This document shows, piece by piece, positions 25,034 through 30,315 of a stretch of DNA of 30,315 bases. This DNA is from a virus, in IMG/VR virus record IMGVR_UViG_3300025133_000438, positions 1 through 30,315 of that record; one strand, 5' to 3'. Positions within the stretch are counted from its first letter, which is position 1. Each line of letters begins with the position of its first letter. The position numbers and the translations under genes were made by a program. The notes under the pieces are model-generated. The model was not told the origin of the DNA and made no database searches. It saw only the letters and a list, made by a program, of their open reading frames with translations.

Positions 25034-25161
25034 TTGCATTTAAAGCAGGGCATACGTCGGATTAACCCTTCAGATTTATCTCTTCTAAACAGGGTATAGC
25101 GTGCGTCTTTGCAGACTTTGCATTTGTATTTGGTTTTAAATTTCTTTTCTTTTATTGTCAT
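25030..25161 (-). CDS. 43-aa zinc-ribbon protein
   Basis: This very short gene reads M-T-I-K-E-K-K-F-K-T at its start and carries two cysteine pairs, C-K-V-C (residues 14-17) and C-F-K-C (39-42), spaced like a minimal zinc ribbon. The remaining residues are mostly Lys and Arg, so binding to nucleic acid is plausible. Its ATG overlaps the SSB-like stop (TAATG), which implies coupled translation as the last gene of the leftward operon. Its own stop overlaps the end of the rightward lysis operon by four bases, with no terminator visible between the two. Confidence 0.65.
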   Translation of the reverse strand: MTIKEKKFKTKYKCKVCKDARYTLFRRDKSEGLIRRMPCFKCN

Positions 25162-25424
25162 TAGAATGGTATCTTATCGTCAACGAATTCTTTTTCTGCT
25201 GATTGAGGTTTCTTAAAGCCATCTTGTTTTTTGTTGTCTTCTATTTTGTAGAAGTTAACAAATCCATTCCACTCTGTGGCTACAGGAATACAATCTATCT
25301 TAGCAAAGACGCTTCCGTCTTCTTTTAAAAATAGCTTTCCCATGTTTTGATATCTGTTTTTTTCTTGACCGTCTTTCATGTATTTTCCGACGGTAGCAAC
25401 TATATTGTGTGTAACTTTTGTCAT
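25161..25424 (-). CDS. SSB-like single-stranded DNA-binding protein
   Basis: The 87-residue protein is beta-rich at the start (V-A-T-V-G-K-Y ... Y-Q-N-M-G-K-L-F-L ... V-F-A-K-I-D-C-I-P-V), compatible with a compact OB fold. It ends with D-D-K-I-P-F, almost the D-D-D-I-P-F tip that bacterial SSB proteins use to recruit repair and replication enzymes. It is much shorter than bacterial SSB (about 170 residues), as phage versions often are. GAGGTG lies about six bases upstream. With the exonuclease and RecT it makes a complete strand-annealing set. The fold is inferred; the tail is seen directly. Confidence 0.65.
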   Translation of the reverse strand: MTKVTHNIVATVGKYMKDGQEKNRYQNMGKLFLKEDGSVFAKIDCIPVATEWNGFVNFYKIEDNKKQDGFKKPQSAEKEFVDDKIPF

Positions 25425-25478: not shown

Positions 25479-25680
25479 GCTGTGAATAACATGTTGACCT
25501 TTGGGTCCTCGTTCCGCACGTCAGTTATACACAGCCTTACCCAATTATTATAGACCATGTGTACACAAATTTATACTTTGTGTAGCTGGATGACTCCGCA
25601 AGAATTTCTAGAGTTATCCACAGAAAACGCCTCCCTTAACAACAATAATAATATTAATAAGTAATATATTAATTTAATTA
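25479..25680. other. Candidate replication origin: DnaA-box cluster with AT-rich flank
   Basis: Three sequences match the DnaA-box consensus TTATNCACA: TTATTCACA on the minus strand (25481-25489), TTATACACA (25525-25533) and the perfect TTATCCACA (25614-25622). Each is embedded in GTTATNCACAG. The first two form an inverted repeat (25479-25490 with 25524-25535, 11 of 12 matching). A 10-bp palindrome TGTGTACACA lies at 25558-25567, and TTGTGTA occurs three times on either strand. From 25638 to 25680 the sequence is almost pure A/T, a plausible unwinding region. The stretch 25425-25677 has no convincing gene. A minus-strand TATAAT lies at 25547-25552, so the region may also drive the SSB-like gene. 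Confidence 0.55.
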
Positions 25681-26058
25681 TAAGTAAGAGTTATAAAGCT
25701 TTTTTAGAAGTCTCTTCTTTTGTCTTTTGGTTAATACGGTCATTATTTTACTTATTTCGCCATTTTGTTTCATCTTATGGATAATATGTTTCTCAAACTC
25801 ATAATAAAACGGCCGTTTAAGGCGCGTAGGCAACGAATCGATAATAAAAGCCATAGATTTAACGGATTTTATTTTGCGTTTAATGAGCGGCTTTAGAGGA
25901 GGAATTATTACTTTGAATTCTCTGCGCGAAAAACGAGATATAAATGAAACAATTTTACGCTCTATTTTCATGTCGCTTTTAGGCTTACTTTTTTTAATTG
26001 TCTTTGGCGGTTTTGGTTTTTTGTATATTAGGTTGTACATCTCTTCTTCAGTTATCAT
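25678..26058 (-). CDS. Basic protein with 33-residue helical repeats
   Basis: From ATG 26058 the product has 126 residues, with AAAGGAA six bases upstream. After a Lys/Pro-rich N-terminus (residues 13-29) it contains three in-register repeat units at 31-63, 64-96 and 97-126. Key positions are hydrophobic residues at unit positions 6, 9-10, 13 and 21-22. The same repeat builds the two genes upstream, but this copy is strongly basic where they are acidic. An in-frame ATG at 26148 has a strong SD inside a hairpin and would add 30 residues (see 26128-26160). No enzyme motif is present. The function is unknown; a protein- or nucleic-acid-binding solenoid is the simplest reading. Confidence 0.65.
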   Translation of the reverse strand: MITEEEMYNLIYKKPKPPKTIKKSKPKSDMKIERKIVSFISRFSRREFKVIIPPLKPLIKRKIKSVKSMAFIIDSLPTRLKRPFYYEFEKHIIHKMKQNGEISKIMTVLTKRQKKRLLKKLYNSYL

Positions 26059-26127
26059 GAAAATTCCTTTTTTGATACTTCGATGATATAGTAAGGGTGC
26101 GCAATGAATCTCTGTGCGACTACTTAG

Positions 26128-26160
26128 CTGGAGGGGGTTTTTAATCATTTCCCCCTCCGG
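26128..26160 (-). promoter_or_regulatory. Hairpin masking an SD and start codon
   Basis: On the minus-strand RNA, GGAGGGGG (complement of 26151-26158) pairs perfectly with CCCCCTCC (complement of 26130-26137). The loop holds the ATG at 26148. The stem therefore contains a very strong SD and the loop the start codon of the longer form of the repeat protein. No U-run follows on either strand, so it is not a standard terminator. Confidence 0.55.
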
Positions 26161-26169
26161 TTACTCTTG

Positions 26170-26694
26170 TTATAAATAATCGAATGGAAAGTCATCCGTG
26201 TATTTTTCTTTTTCTTCTGGGAATAAGTAGCACTCTAAATGTGAAAGTTCTTCCTTACATGAAACCACCTCAATCATAGAGTCATGAATTCTCTCAAGGA
26301 ATGCTTCTCTTTGTTCTTTTTCCAAGAACTCGATTATATTTACAATATCATCAGATGAACTCACCATATAGATTAAGTAGTCTACATACTCTTCGAATAA
26401 ATATTTCACTTCTTCATCGTCAAGACAAGACGTGATTAGATTGAAATCTTTGATGTTTGTAATTAACTTATCCATGTGGATGTCGAACATTTGAAAAATC
26501 AAAGCTCTTTCAGGCTTTTCAAATGATTTCATTAGCCTATAAAAGTCTTGTGATGTGTTAATTAACTTAGGTAAGTCATCCATTAACGTTTTTAGAAGGC
26601 TAACATTGCACTCTATTCTTTTTTGAGTGATGGCGTGCGCCTGCATTAACGAGCTTGTTTTATTCCCTTTGAATTTTTTTGTGTAAATAATCAT
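26170..26694 (-). CDS. Acidic protein with four 33-residue helical repeats
   Basis: The 174-residue protein has a short basic start (residues 5-12) and then repeats at 46-78, 79-111, 112-144 and a partial one at 145-174. Each unit has the pattern small/polar-x-x-x-D-F/I, hydrophobic at 9-10, L or F at 13, E-E/E-x-Q near 16-17 and hydrophobic at 21-22. This fits two helices per unit stacked into a solenoid. The sequence is not ankyrin (no G-x-T-P-L-H) or TPR (no W-L-G-Y-A-F-A-P pattern). The end is very acidic (Y-T-D-D-F-P-F-D). AAGGGAAACAAA precedes the start; the upstream paralogue ends ten bases away. The function is unknown. Confidence 0.65.
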   Translation of the reverse strand: MIIYTKKFKGNKTSSLMQAHAITQKRIECNVSLLKTLMDDLPKLINTSQDFYRLMKSFEKPERALIFQMFDIHMDKLITNIKDFNLITSCLDDEEVKYLFEEYVDYLIYMVSSSDDIVNIIEFLEKEQREAFLERIHDSMIEVVSCKEELSHLECYLFPEEKEKYTDDFPFDYL

Positions 26695-26704
26695 TTTGTT
26701 TCCC

Positions 26705-27040
26705 TTATAAATGGCTAATTAATAATTTATCGGCATGGTTAGATAAGAAAAAAGTTTTGTTCTCTTCGCTCATCACCTTCAACGCATAAATTGCGTCCTT
26801 GCTATCTCCTATAACATATCTAAACAGGCTAGACATATCTAAAAATATTAAATCTCTAATAACTTTTCCAAAGCATTTTGTTATTATATAAAAGTCATAT
26901 AAGCAACTGATATAATCTGGTATGACTTCTCTGATTTCCTCGAACAAACTTTCTTTTTCATCTTCTGAAAGTATCTCAAGAAATTTAGCTATTTGCATCG
27001 GGTTATTTAGTATATTAAAAATTTGAACGTTTCTATCCAT
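26705..27040 (-). CDS. Acidic protein with three 33-residue helical repeats
   Basis: The 111-residue protein consists almost entirely of repeat units at residues 12-44, 45-77 and 78-111, of the same family as the two genes downstream. The third unit is one residue longer. Net charge is negative. Unit starts carry N-N-P-M-Q-I, S-C-L-Y-D-F and G-D-S-K-D-A. No cysteine cluster, membrane segment or catalytic motif is seen. AAGGATAAAAACC lies before the ATG, and the start overlaps the end of the membrane-protein gene by eight bases, so it is co-translated in the early operon. The function is unknown. Confidence 0.65.
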   Translation of the reverse strand: MDRNVQIFNILNNPMQIAKFLEILSEDEKESLFEEIREVIPDYISCLYDFYIITKCFGKVIRDLIFLDMSSLFRYVIGDSKDAIYALKVMSEENKTFFLSNHADKLLISHL

Positions 27041-27287
27041 GGTTTTTATCCTTTATTTGTTTTGTAATTCTTACACGGGTCGGGAATGGAAACATAGGAG
27101 AGGATGCGGGAGAATAGCATTCCCAATATTGGTTATCATCAGGCGAAATCTGATCGGCTATGAAGCCTAGTCCAAAAAACATCACAACCACCAATAATGT
27201 TGCTGGAAAATCACACAAAAAGCCACGACAATAAAGAAGCACTATAGCAGCAGTCCATATTGAAAATATGATTATAAGTATACACAT
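27033..27287 (-). CDS. Small membrane protein with two TM segments
   Basis: The 84-residue product has two hydrophobic segments at residues 2-19 (I-L-I-I-I-F-S-I-W-T-A-A-I-V-L-L) and about 28-46 (A-T-L-L-V-V-V-M-F-F-G-L-G-F-I-A), followed by a polar C-terminal tail of about 38 residues. The first segment could also be a signal sequence. Its start lies three bases after the RecT stop and has AAGGATGATTAACAA upstream, which comes from the end of recT. It is unrecognised. Early phage membrane proteins of this kind include superinfection-exclusion factors, but nothing here proves that. Confidence 0.6.
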   Translation of the reverse strand: MCILIIIFSIWTAAIVLLYCRGFLCDFPATLLVVVMFFGLGFIADQISPDDNQYWECYSPASSPMFPFPTRVRITKQIKDKNHG

Positions 27288-27290
27288 TTG

Positions 27291-28058
27291 TTAATCATCC
27301 TTGTTCTGTAGTTCTTTTAAAATCTCTTCGCTTTGAGTCTTTGGCTCTTCTATTGCCATTACTTCTTCAGGTTCTATTACTAATTCGTTTCTTTGGTCTC
27401 CTCTTTCTGCTTGTTCATCTAGGTTAACTGCTTTTTGTATTTCAATTGAGACTGGCAAGTACTTAAAAAGTCTTCTTATGACAGTCTTTCTAGCCATCTC
27501 TTCGTAATCTGTTACCCACGGCCCGCTGCGTCCTGACTTTGATCTAGCTCTAATCTTATCTACATCTCTTTTAGACATGACCTCAATTTGATGTGAACCA
27601 TCTTTAAGTCTAGCCACTCCGTAGACTGCAACTATTTCACCTTCTTCTTCTAAGGTTGGTACATGTATTAGATTTTCTTTTAATCCATATTCAAATCTAA
27701 ATTCATCATTTGCATGAACCACATGCGCGCTAAGTGATAGAAGTTTGTCTGAACGTCTAACTAAGTCAAGCATTCCTCTATAACCAATCATGAATTGGCA
27801 TTGAGTTCCATAAGGAATTAGATATGCATGACCTAATGTGCTGCCTGGTTCTAATCCAAGCTGCGAACACTGAATAACACTTCCTAGTAATGATTTTGGG
27901 TCGCATTGCATTAGCTTTGGATTCTTTCTGAATTCGGTTAAACAGATACGTAACATTCTGTCTGCCGTTAAATGTTTCGGCAAAGCTGCCATGATTTGCT
28001 TTTTCTGAGAATCAAGCAATCCTGAGATTGTATTCTTTGCTTCTGATAGTTCTTTCAT
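27291..28058 (-). CDS. recT: RecT-family single-strand annealing protein
   Basis: The 255-residue protein carries the RecT core: C-S-Q-L-G-L-E-P, G-H-A-Y-L-I-P-Y-G, F-M-I-G-Y-R-G-M-L-D-L-V-R-R, and near the C-terminus R-S-G-P-W-V-T-D-Y-E-E-M-A-R-K-T-V-I-R-R-L. It anneals complementary strands exposed by the partner exonuclease. I chose ATG 28058: it has GGAG eight bases upstream, forms an ATGA overlap with the preceding gene, and gives the usual M-K-E-L start. An upstream ATG at 28127 would add 23 unlikely residues. The C-terminus (about 215-255) is acidic and flexible, as in many relatives. Confidence 0.93.
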   Translation of the reverse strand: MKELSEAKNTISGLLDSQKKQIMAALPKHLTADRMLRICLTEFRKNPKLMQCDPKSLLGSVIQCSQLGLEPGSTLGHAYLIPYGTQCQFMIGYRGMLDLVRRSDKLLSLSAHVVHANDEFRFEYGLKENLIHVPTLEEEGEIVAVYGVARLKDGSHQIEVMSKRDVDKIRARSKSGRSGPWVTDYEEMARKTVIRRLFKYLPVSIEIQKAVNLDEQAERGDQRNELVIEPEEVMAIEEPKTQSEEILKELQNKDD

Positions 28059-28270
28059 TTTTTTTGCTCCATGAGTTTTTCTAGTTCTTTGTGTTTTGCA
28101 GTTAGTGATTTTATTCCATGTAAGCACAGTTTATGTAACTTTGTGTGACCGAGGATGCACTCTTCTAGTTCCTTTATACGATCAGATAAGAGGTTAGTAC
28201 AATTTTTTTGTTCATGTGTAGTTTGGTTTATGGTATCGATATATTGCATCATAAGTTTTTTAGTTCTCAT
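28055..28270 (-). CDS. 71-aa coiled-coil protein before recT
   Basis: The product is helical throughout, with heptad-like Leu/Ile spacing (L-L-S-D-R-I-K-E-L-E-E-C-I-L, residues 27-40, and L-T-A-K-H-K-E-L-E-K-L-M-E-Q-K near the end). It has a basic start and two to three Cys/His residues without a clear metal site. A consensus promoter lies about 30 bases upstream (28299-28326), making this the first gene of an internal transcript. The stop overlaps the recT start (ATGA). Its SD (GAGGGA) is somewhat far from ATG 28270. No family is recognised. Confidence 0.55.
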   Translation of the reverse strand: MRTKKLMMQYIDTINQTTHEQKNCTNLLSDRIKELEECILGHTKLHKLCLHGIKSLTAKHKELEKLMEQKK

Positions 28271-28298: not shown

Positions 28299-28326
28299 AT
28301 TATAACATGGTGTGTAGTTTTGTCAA
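28299..28326 (-). promoter_or_regulatory. Internal early promoter (consensus)
   Basis: On the minus strand, TTGACA (28326-28321) and TATAAT (28304-28299) are both perfect and 16 bases apart, and TGT before the -10 makes it an extended -10. It would start the transcript for the coiled-coil gene, recT and everything downstream. It has no copy of the operator motif found at 30137-30203. Confidence 0.85.
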
Positions 28327-28331
28327 TTCAT

Positions 28332-29246
28332 TTATTCCTTTTTCTTCTTTATTAGTAGGTTTCTGTTTGGCTTGTATTTTGAAAATTGCTTGTGAATATC
28401 CGGGTGCTCTGCTTTTAGCTTTATCAAATCCACACTGTTACGTCCACTATGTTTAGCAGTTGCAATCACTTCGCCAAACCCGTCGACTAAACTTTGTGAG
28501 TCTTTCATGTATTTTAATATCTCCAGCTTTATGGCTCTTTCTTCTTGAGTTAAGAGCTTTATTTCTTGTTTTATCGTTATCGCTTTATCAATTAATATTT
28601 CTATTTCCAAATCAGCTATCTTAATGTCATCTAATTCATTCTGACTCCAGATATTAGATGCTTCTTTGTATGTGCTAGGGTCAGGTGGATTGTTTTTTAA
28701 AACATGGTTGTTCCAAAAGCTCATCTCATGGCTAATCAATTCCTCTTCTAATTTCTTGTCTCTGAGTATCGTATATATACGAAAGTCATTGCCTCCTATT
28801 AAGACTGCTATGTCCGCAGAATCTGCATCTAATACAGCCATATAGTGCGCACACTGTATGAGGTATTCTTTTGGTACTCGGCCATTAGGAGCGTCTCCCC
28901 ATTTTTTATCGCTGTATTGACTACATGTTTTTATTTCTACTATTTTTTTCTTAGAGGGGATGTAACCATCAAGGTTAGCCAACATAAATGAATGCTCAGG
29001 ATGTATAAATGTTTCTAAGTCTGTCTCAACTTTGTCTTTAGTTCGAGTTTCGTATTCTTGAATTAAGATAGGCTCTAATAGGTTTCCGAAGTAAGTAAAA
29101 TTATTTCCTTCGAATTCTTCGGATTCTCCTTTTTTGTCTAGATAGACATCTAGTGGAGTGCGGTAGTCTGATTGTGCTAGAACGGAGGCGGCATCACTAC
29201 CGCCTATACCGTTTTGTCTTTGTTGTCGCTGTTCTTGCGTTAACAT
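28332..29246 (-). CDS. YqaJ / lambda-exonuclease family 5'-3' exonuclease
   Basis: The 304-residue protein has the family start G-I-G-G-S-D-A-A (residues 13-20), then E58 in L-L-E-P, D93 in N-L-D-G-Y, the E104-x-K106 pair in V-E-I-K-T-C and Q131 in I-Q-C-A-H-Y-M. These are the metal-binding and catalytic residues of the PD-(D/E)xK exonucleases that degrade one strand of double-stranded DNA ends. It pairs with RecT downstream as lambda Exo pairs with Bet. AAGGAAGGAACC gives a strong SD. Because a strong promoter lies just after its stop, exonuclease and recT can be expressed at different levels. Confidence 0.92.
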   Translation of the reverse strand: MLTQEQRQQRQNGIGGSDAASVLAQSDYRTPLDVYLDKKGESEEFEGNNFTYFGNLLEPILIQEYETRTKDKVETDLETFIHPEHSFMLANLDGYIPSKKKIVEIKTCSQYSDKKWGDAPNGRVPKEYLIQCAHYMAVLDADSADIAVLIGGNDFRIYTILRDKKLEEELISHEMSFWNNHVLKNNPPDPSTYKEASNIWSQNELDDIKIADLEIEILIDKAITIKQEIKLLTQEERAIKLEILKYMKDSQSLVDGFGEVIATAKHSGRNSVDLIKLKAEHPDIHKQFSKYKPNRNLLIKKKKE

Positions 29247-29316: not shown

Positions 29317-29627
29317 GTTTGGTTCTCCAGTTCTTCTTGTGCGATTCTGTAGTTTATTTCCATATTTTTAAAAGCTCTTCTCATTAGTTCTTTATGAATT
29401 TCGCATTCATTTTCTTCTAAAAGCTTATGCATTCGCTCTTTAGTTCCTTGCGGGTAAGCGGCGTCTATCTCAGCAATTTCGTTGCTAATTCTCGTTGCTT
29501 CCTCTACGAACTCTCTGAGATTTGCTTCGCAATTATCAGGGTCGTTTTCCATCCAGTCTTCGTATTCTTTTTTTTGAGCCAGCATTTTCATTTCCCAAAG
29601 CTGCTCGTCGGTTTTATGATTTAGCAT
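29313..29627 (-). CDS. Unknown 104-aa acidic helical protein
   Basis: The product is rich in Glu, Met and Asn and is likely all helical, with a long charged stretch (Y-E-D-W-M-E-N-D-P-D-N, residues 22-32) and a coiled-coil-like middle (F-V-E-E-A-T-R-I-S-N-E-I-A-E-I-D). It overlaps the csrA stop by 14 bases and has AAGGAAG about nine bases before its ATG. No motif is recognised. Direct overlap with csrA raises the possibility of functional linkage, such as a CsrA partner, but this is only positional. Confidence 0.6.
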   Translation of the reverse strand: MLNHKTDEQLWEMKMLAQKKEYEDWMENDPDNCEANLREFVEEATRISNEIAEIDAAYPQGTKERMHKLLEENECEIHKELMRRAFKNMEINYRIAQEELENQT

Positions 29628-29820
29628 AAAATAACTTCCTTATATTTATTTTTCTTACTTTTTTCTTTGTAGTGCATTTTGCGTCATCCCTTAAGATTTT
29701 TAAGGCTGTTGGCGCGTCAATTCCAATTTTTCCTATTCCATTTTCTGATCCGATAAAAGTAATATTAATATCTTCACCGATTGAAATTGAGGTACCCGGT
29801 TTTCTACTTAAAATTAACAT
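29614..29820 (-). CDS. csrA: CsrA-family RNA-binding translational regulator
   Basis: The 68-residue protein aligns without gaps over residues 1-48 with E. coli CsrA: M-L-I-L-S-R-K-P-G, I-G-E-D-I, I-G-I-D-A-P and L-R-D-D. The RNA-contacting residues L4, R6 and R44 are all present at the same numbers (R7 is Lys). CsrA dimers bind GGA motifs in mRNA leaders and block or stabilise transcripts. From residue 49 this protein differs: instead of the usual C-terminal helix it has a basic tail (T-K-K-K-V-R-K-I-N-I-R-K). AGAGGA lies about eight bases before ATG. It is early in the leftward operon, so it could act on host or phage mRNAs soon after infection or induction. Confidence 0.9.
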   Translation of the reverse strand: MLILSRKPGTSISIGEDINITFIGSENGIGKIGIDAPTALKILRDDAKCTTKKKVRKINIRKLFYAKS

Positions 29821-30131: not shown

Positions 30132-30159
30132 ATTATAACACCAAGATAAGTAATGTCAA
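30132..30159 (-). promoter_or_regulatory. Main leftward early promoter
   Basis: On the minus strand, TTGACA (30159-30154) and TATAAT (30137-30132) are perfect, separated by 16 bases, with TGT before the -10. It has the same architecture as the internal promoter at 28299-28326. Two operator-like repeats (30137-30148 and 30158-30169) touch its -10 and -35, so a bound repressor would block it. Confidence 0.88.
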
Positions 30160-30235: not shown

Positions 30236-30315
30236 ATGAAGAAATTAAAATTAATACAAAAAAAACTCGGCGTTAGCCAGAGAGGATTAGCTGAAATTCT
30301 AGATGTTACTCAAGC
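30236..30315 (+). CDS. HTH XRE-family regulator, N-terminal part (cut by window edge)
   Basis: Only 26 residues are visible: a basic start, then K-K-L-G-V-S-Q-R-G-L-A-E-I-L-D-V-T-Q, the classic first two helices and turn of the Cro/CI (XRE) DNA-binding fold. It is divergent from the early operon with shared operators, the arrangement of a phage repressor or Cro-like protein. Without the rest it is not possible to tell which. No good SD precedes ATG 30236; the expected 5' leader is only about 20 bases, so translation may be weak. Confidence 0.75.
   Translation, partial: MKKLKLIQKKLGVSQRGLAEILDVTQ

What the first reader, a model, noticed from the sequence alone, without database searches (positions are those of the whole stretch)
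25678..27040. Three adjacent genes built from an in-register 33-residue helical repeat
Ten units across three proteins align with nearly constant 33-residue spacing: residues 46-174 of the 174-aa protein, 12-111 of the 111-aa protein and 31-126 of the 126-aa protein. Shared positions are D-F/I at 5-6, hydrophobic 9-10, L/F at 13 and hydrophobic 21-22. The pattern is not ankyrin, TPR or any repeat I recognise. Two members are acidic and one strongly basic, so they may bind each other or use one another as an inhibitor, for example with the acidic members mimicking DNA. Early expression and adjacency suggest an unrecognised phage system acting on the host.
Basis: partly seen in the sequence, partly recalled or inferred. 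Interest (0 to 1): 0.75.

Follow-up and report, generated by a model that had tools for sequence, protein, structure and literature searches.

The report
Orphan helical-repeat gene trio in phage
Three neighbouring early genes of an uncultured phage encode small proteins built from the same 33-residue pair of helices, a repeat that matches no catalogued family; two are acidic and one strongly basic, and they sit inside the phage's DNA-recombination gene block where related phages have nothing, so they probably tune DNA processing or disarm a host protein, though their function is untested.

Summary
A (174 aa), B (111 aa) and C (126 aa) share a 33-residue unit. A alone has a sharp 33-residue periodicity (no shuffle of 3000 matched it). 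A profile made from the units of any one protein ranks the other two 2nd and 3rd of 3,244 ORFs. Eight of the ten units stand on their own; the last unit of A and the first of C are weak. AlphaFold2 gives short-helix/long-helix hairpins, confident for C 30-125 and A 45-140. No Pfam, PHROG, NCBIfam, PDB-sequence, phage, plasmid or IMG/VR relative was found. The fold of A faintly resembles Pumilio-type solenoids and its sequence the MgtE N-domain; neither passes a membership test.
New context: the trio lies in the operon exo-recT-(TM protein)-B-A-C-[three DnaA boxes]-ssb-like. Two syntenic relatives have exo-annealing protein-ssb with 10-11 bp between the last two, so the trio is an accessory insertion. 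C has a Lys/Pro-rich disordered tail, and its extra charge sits at repeat positions that are acidic in A and B. Best reading: accessory solenoids of the recombination module, working in the manner of Gam/Abc (host DNA-end processing), with C binding nucleic acid or the acidic pair. Function is inferred only.

The parts
26170..26694 (-). Protein A, 174 aa, acidic (pI 4.73): helical N-terminal part (1-43) followed by four 33-residue units
26467..26565 (-). A unit 1 (residues 44-76)
26368..26466 (-). A unit 2 (residues 77-109)
26269..26367 (-). A unit 3 (residues 110-142)
26173..26268 (-). A unit 4 (residues 143-174), weak: low leave-one-out score and low pLDDT
26705..27040 (-). Protein B, 111 aa, acidic (pI 4.81): three units (from residues 10, 43, 76)
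26915..27013 (-). B unit 1 (residues 10-42)
26816..26914 (-). B unit 2 (residues 43-75)
26717..26815 (-). B unit 3 (residues 76-108)
25678..26058 (-). Protein C, 126 aa, basic (pI 10.46): Lys/Pro-rich disordered N-terminal tail (about 13-28), then three units
25876..25974 (-). C unit 1 (residues 29-61), weak by sequence, confident helices in the model
25777..25875 (-). C unit 2 (residues 62-94)
25681..25776 (-). C unit 3 (residues 95-126)
27033..27287 (-). 84-aa hydrophobic (probable membrane) protein of unknown function; its end overlaps the start of B
   Evidence: no family match
27291..28058 (-). recT single-strand annealing protein (ORF as listed opens at 28127 with GTG; ATG at 28058)
   Evidence: PF03837 E=4e-55, PHROG 148 E=7e-95
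28332..29246 (-). RecE-like/YqaJ exonuclease
   Evidence: PF09588 E=2.7e-35, PHROG 434
25161..25424 (-). ssb-like 87-aa ORF ending in DDKIPF, the next gene after C
   Evidence: sequence; weak match to an annotated phage SSB; syntenic ssb genes in relatives
28299..28326 (-). Promoter TTGACA-16-TATAAT with TG, upstream of g28055-recT-TM-B-A-C
   Evidence: 12 of 12 consensus bases

Best explanation
Shown: A, B and C are paralogues made of the same 33-residue unit. Predicted: each unit is a short helix (about repeat positions 5-15) and a long helix (about 17-33) packed as a small alpha-solenoid. Shown: they form the downstream half of the phage's exo-recT early gene block and are inserted between the annealing protein and the ssb-like gene. 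Inferred: they are accessory proteins of the recombination/replication module that act by protein or nucleic-acid binding, with no catalytic activity. The mechanism I consider most likely is Gam/Abc-like in role but not in ancestry: the acidic solenoids A and B dock on a host (or phage) DNA-end-processing or recombination protein, blocking it or redirecting it, so that the phage's own exonuclease and RecT handle its DNA ends; the basic member C, with its Lys/Pro-rich tail, binds DNA or RNA and/or pairs with A and B through complementary charges on the same faces of the repeat. Confidence about 0.85 for the repeat and fold class, about 0.35 for the Gam/Abc-like role.
For: Repeat and common origin; MAFFT aligns A, B and C in register without internal gaps through three units. 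Fold: AlphaFold2 for C, pLDDT about 90 over 30-125, helices 30-40/45-62, 66-75/78-99, 102-106/111-125; for A, 80-90 over 45-140, helices 48-56/60-77, 81-88/93-110, 114-121/126-149. Context: exo, recT, membrane ORF, B, A, C, ssb-like on one strand, with a perfect promoter at 28326 and overlapping or close gene borders (B starts inside the end of the 84-aa ORF; A starts 10 bp after B). In relatives G002 and G004 (TerL 51-52% identical, syntenic) the block is exo, annealing protein, ssb, with 10-11 bp between the last two. Charge swap: positions 3, 18 and 21 are +1 in all three C units but neutral or acidic in A and B. Precedent: lambda Gam and T7 gp5.9 are small acidic helical proteins that block RecBCD by DNA mimicry, and P22 Abc2 redirects RecBCD (PMC5218532; PMC9836394).
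Against: No direct evidence of any binding partner. A and B are only mildly acidic for DNA mimics. The host is unknown, so it is not known whether it has RecBCD or AddAB. Location next to recT is shared by many unrelated accessory phage genes. The structural models rest on three sequences.
Confidence: 0.4

Rival explanations
1. Host-takeover or counter-defence adaptors that bind a host protein unrelated to recombination. The trio is cargo that happens to sit in the early operon, and repeat solenoids give quickly evolving binding surfaces.
For: Accessory insertion absent in relatives; no homologues anywhere searched, as expected of fast-evolving host-interaction genes; unit pairs share only 1 to 11 of 33 identical residues.
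Against: The position between recT and ssb points to DNA metabolism; no defence-related match is significant.
Confidence: 0.3
2. A self-contained charge-paired set: C is the active nucleic-acid-binding protein and A and B are its antagonists, chaperones or assembly partners, binding it through equivalent repeat faces.
For: pI 10.46 against 4.7-4.8; opposite charge at the same repeat positions 18, 21, 25, 29; C has its own start region with a hairpin that could separate its expression from A.
Against: No complex modelling was possible; a charge difference alone is common between unrelated proteins.
Confidence: 0.2
3. A sequence-reading nucleic-acid-binding solenoid (Pumilio- or TALE-like in how it works), for example acting at the DnaA-box region just downstream or on phage mRNA.
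For: Foldseek's list for A is dominated by PUF domains (best Puf4, probability 0.99, TM 0.46, E 0.18); C is basic with a lysine-rich tail; DnaA-box cluster adjacent; the phage also carries a CsrA-like RNA-binding protein.
Against: Foldseek E-values are not significant; C, the basic member, matches no PUF; the PUF profile does not ring in the window; A and B are acidic; no base-reading positions or TALE-type Gly-Gly are conserved across units.
Confidence: 0.1
4. No shared repeat: an impression from amphipathic helices and AT-rich composition.
For: C is not found by the single-unit HMMs of A and B; A4 and C1 score weakly.
Against: Lag-33 signal in A beyond 3000 shuffles; reciprocal ranks 2 and 3 of 3,244 ORFs from phage loci and bacterial genomes; helices in the models repeat with the same spacing.
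Confidence: 0.03

Closest known systems
Pumilio (PUF) repeat domains, PF00806
   Same: Alpha-solenoid of roughly the same unit size (PUF about 36 residues); Foldseek's top list for the model of A is mostly PUF.
   Different: Not significant (E 0.18 or more), profile does not match, unit of 33 with two helices, acidic, 3-4 units, no RNA-reading triplet. A review counts only 67 PUF proteins among viruses (PMC11514114).
MgtE N-domain (PF03448) / FliG armadillo-like helical repeats
   Same: Weak sequence match to A units 1-3 (E 0.0012, 19.7 bits); MgtE and FliG chains also appear low in the PDB profile list and the Foldseek list.
   Different: Below the curated cut-off (25.9 bits); B and C do not match.
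TALE and TALE-like repeats (33-35 residues)
   Same: Same unit length and a short helix followed by a long helix (family description from general knowledge).
   Different: No Gly-Gly after helix 1, no variable di-residue at a fixed place, no match in Pfam or in the Foldseek rows shown.
Lambda Gam, T7 gp5.9 and P22 Abc1/Abc2/Arf (host RecBCD modifiers in phage recombination)
   Same: Small early phage proteins (Gam and gp5.9 acidic and helical) that work beside phage recombination.
   Different: No sequence match; gp5.9 is a coiled coil and Gam a dimer of another fold; the window proteins are repeat solenoids and less acidic.

Membership tests
Pumilio (PUF) repeat | Match to the PUF profile PF00806 over its cut-off | tested here: not met
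   no match at E<=10 in the window; none
Pumilio (PUF) repeat | PUF fold (significant structural match) | tested here: inconclusive
   probability up to 0.99 and TM 0.46 but E 0.18 for A; none for C
Pumilio (PUF) repeat | RNA-reading residues at fixed positions of helix 2 | tested here: not met
   positions 9, 10, 13 vary without the PUF pattern (read by eye against the general description of the family)
MgtE N-domain | Match to PF03448 over 25.9 bits | tested here: not met
   at most 19.7 bits, only A
TPR / ankyrin / HEAT / ARM / PPR / Sel1 | Match to the Pfam repeat models | tested here: not met
   none for A, B or C at E<=1 to 10
TALE-like repeat | Gly-rich turn with repeat-variable di-residue after helix 1 | tested here: not met
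   positions 15-19 are mostly L-x-x-E-E/Q, no conserved glycine
TALE-like repeat | Sequence-specific DNA binding | not testable with these tools
   needs EMSA or a structure with DNA
Gam / gp5.9 class of RecBCD inhibitor | Sequence family match | tested here: not met
   no match
Gam / gp5.9 class of RecBCD inhibitor | Gene lies in or beside the phage recombination operon | tested here: met
Gam / gp5.9 class of RecBCD inhibitor | Inhibits RecBCD | not testable with these tools
   biochemical assay needed
New 33-residue helical-hairpin repeat (this report) | Units recognised reciprocally between the three proteins | tested here: met

The most novel reading that the evidence does not exclude
A previously undescribed alpha-solenoid repeat family in phages, deployed as an acidic-acidic-basic trio that controls DNA-end processing or recombinase loading during infection, with the basic member binding nucleic acid and the acidic members matching its faces or mimicking DNA. 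It would be a modular, repeat-built counterpart of Gam/Abc.
Probability: 0.2. Interest if true: 0.75.

Novelty: new variant of a known kind. Interest (0 to 1): 0.5.

Why it matters
Alpha-solenoids are reported to be strongly depleted in viruses (PMC11514114), and here a phage carries three of them, side by side, of a type that none of the searched libraries holds. If they act in DNA-end processing they would add a repeat-based class to the known phage modifiers of host recombination. If not, they still define a new repeat whose partner can be found by simple pull-down. The empty slot in relatives gives a clean natural comparison.

Tried and rejected
Two tandem DNA patterns over IMG/VR gave 24 stretches, all low-complexity, off-frame or unrelated. 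The profile against 395 genomes of the phylum of a Desulfobacterales MAG and 399 of that of Aneurinibacillus gave one single-unit chance hit; Gammaproteobacteria could not be reached because the E. coli locus is not held. Exo as query: none. The profile over complete records of the closest terminase relatives: none.
Rejected: Pfam hits of the artificial consensus and NCBIfam hits, because an idealised tandem inflates scores and the natural sequences do not match. PADLOC hits at E about 0.003-0.014: partial matches to large or unrelated models. PUF membership: see table. Host assignment from RecT (Bacillota, Desulfobacterales at about 50%): too distant, and TerL points elsewhere (36-37% to Idiomarinaceae and Pseudoalteromonas phages), so the host is left open.
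A lead from memory only: I recall 33-residue repeats with a similar pattern in proteins of intracellular Gammaproteobacteria. It could not be tested here and carries no weight in the verdict.

Full report
What was checked. The window is a 30,315-base virus record. On the + strand lie packaging and structural genes (terminase, portal, head closure, tail fibres) and lysis genes; from about 25.1 kb on the genes run on the minus strand. The three ORFs of the finding are C (25678-26058), A (26170-26694) and B (26705-27040).

Is the repeat real? Yes. In A the residue-by-residue BLOSUM similarity at lag 33 is the highest of all lags and no shuffle out of 3000 reaches it; lag 66 is second. B and C alone are weak at lag 33, but the three recognise one another. 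The best ungapped alignment of A and B beats all 500 shuffles, and the next offsets in the list differ from it by multiples of 33. Circular-register comparison puts register 0 first for A-B (14.5 against -14.3 for the next) and a one-residue shift first for both A-C and B-C, which fixes the C units at residues 29, 62 and 95. An HMM from A units finds B as the best other ORF among 15,670 (E 0.019), and an HMM from B finds A (E 1.2e-4); C is not found that way. With a three-unit tandem score, profiles from A, from B and from C each place the other two proteins at ranks 2 and 3 of 3,244 ORFs. Leave-one-out scores support A1-A3, B1, B2, C2 and C3 strongly, B3 moderately, and A4 and C1 weakly.

What the unit looks like. 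Positions 2, 8, 11, 15, 23, 24, 27 and 31 are hydrophobic in at least nine of ten units, position 7 is D/E in seven and position 20 K/R in eight. AlphaFold2 on the three-sequence alignment gives short-helix plus long-helix hairpins with the same spacing: C at pLDDT about 90 over residues 30-125, A at 80-90 over 45-140, with the fourth unit and the N-terminus uncertain. The alignment is shallow, so overall geometry is less certain than the secondary structure.

Is it a known family? PHROGs, Pfam, NCBIfam, PADLOC and PDB sequences give nothing convincing. The best sequence lead is MgtE_N against A at 17-20 bits, under its 25.9-bit cut-off. Foldseek finds nothing for C in PDB or in the viral library and a PUF-dominated but non-significant list for A; the PUF profile does not ring in the window. 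A scan of the GTDB genome collection was negative but insensitive, and Gammaproteobacteria could not be searched with the profile. 'Orphan' therefore means: within what could be searched.

Context. The minus-strand block reads CsrA-like, small ORF, RecE-like exonuclease, small ORF, recT, 84-aa hydrophobic ORF, B, A, C, then a 250-bp gap and an 87-aa ssb-like ORF ending DDKIPF. A perfect extended sigma-70 promoter stands before the recT part and another before the block. B begins within the end of the ORF before it and A 10 bp after B, so B and A are likely co-translated with the recT unit; C follows after 111 bp (or 21 bp if the longer 156-aa start is used). In two syntenic relatives, G002 and G004, the same place holds exo, annealing protein and ssb with 10-11 bp between the last two (the annealing protein and ssb there were named by eye from their sequences and the ...IPF ends). 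The trio, with the hydrophobic ORF and the DnaA-box gap, is thus an accessory insertion into a recombination module.

How it may work. Shown: common repeat, charges, place. Inferred: repeat solenoids of 3-4 units without conserved polar catalytic residues are binding proteins. C has net charge +25 and a Lys/Pro-rich tail that the model leaves disordered, and the extra charge falls on repeat positions 3, 18 and 21 in all three units, positions that are neutral or acidic in A and B. Phage recombination genes often travel with small proteins that modify the host's end-processing enzyme: Gam and gp5.9 act by DNA mimicry, Abc2 by binding RecC. I therefore favour a Gam/Abc-like role for A and B and nucleic-acid or partner binding for C, at about 0.35 for the role. 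General counter-defence, a self-contained acidic/basic set, and sequence-reading RNA/DNA binding are rivals in that order.

Verdict. A true helical repeat, uncatalogued in the libraries searched, in three adjacent phage genes, of the alpha-solenoid kind; the functional story is open. Interest 0.5.

Noticed in passing
window 25481-25622 (+ AT-rich inverted repeats 25645-25681): Three of the window's four TTATNCACA (DnaA-box) matches lie within 142 bp between C and the ssb-like gene, beside AT-rich inverted repeats: a candidate replication origin.
   Followed up: partly
window 26130-26158 (-): Perfect inverted repeat GGAGGGGG/CCCCCTCC that holds the Shine-Dalgarno and start codon of the 156-aa form of C; the region folds better than 199 of 200 shuffles. 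Possible translational switch.
   Followed up: partly
window 29614-29820 (-): CsrA-like regulator (PF02599 E 1.1e-15) in the same early block.
   Followed up: no
window 30132-30159 and 28299-28326 (-): Two full-consensus extended sigma-70 promoters with the same 16-base spacing.
   Followed up: no
window 30236-30315 (+): Start of a helix-turn-helix (Xre-like by eye) protein, cut by the contig end, divergent from the early block: suggests a temperate-type switch.
   Followed up: no
L003 (6,942 bp contig): Near-identical contig (99.97%) from IMG/VR that starts one base after the window's start; a shared natural or assembly end.
   Followed up: partly
L136 (G002:C1 33166-36448): The relative G002 encodes adjacent proteins that by eye look like PRPP synthetase and nicotinamide phosphoribosyltransferase, a NAD-salvage pair of possible counter-defence use; no family search was run.
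   Followed up: no
L040 and L041, downstream of recT: Small ORFs with double-glycine-leader-like N-termini (e.g. ...VEQVSGG......IHEVDGG...) in phages with close recT relatives.
   Followed up: no
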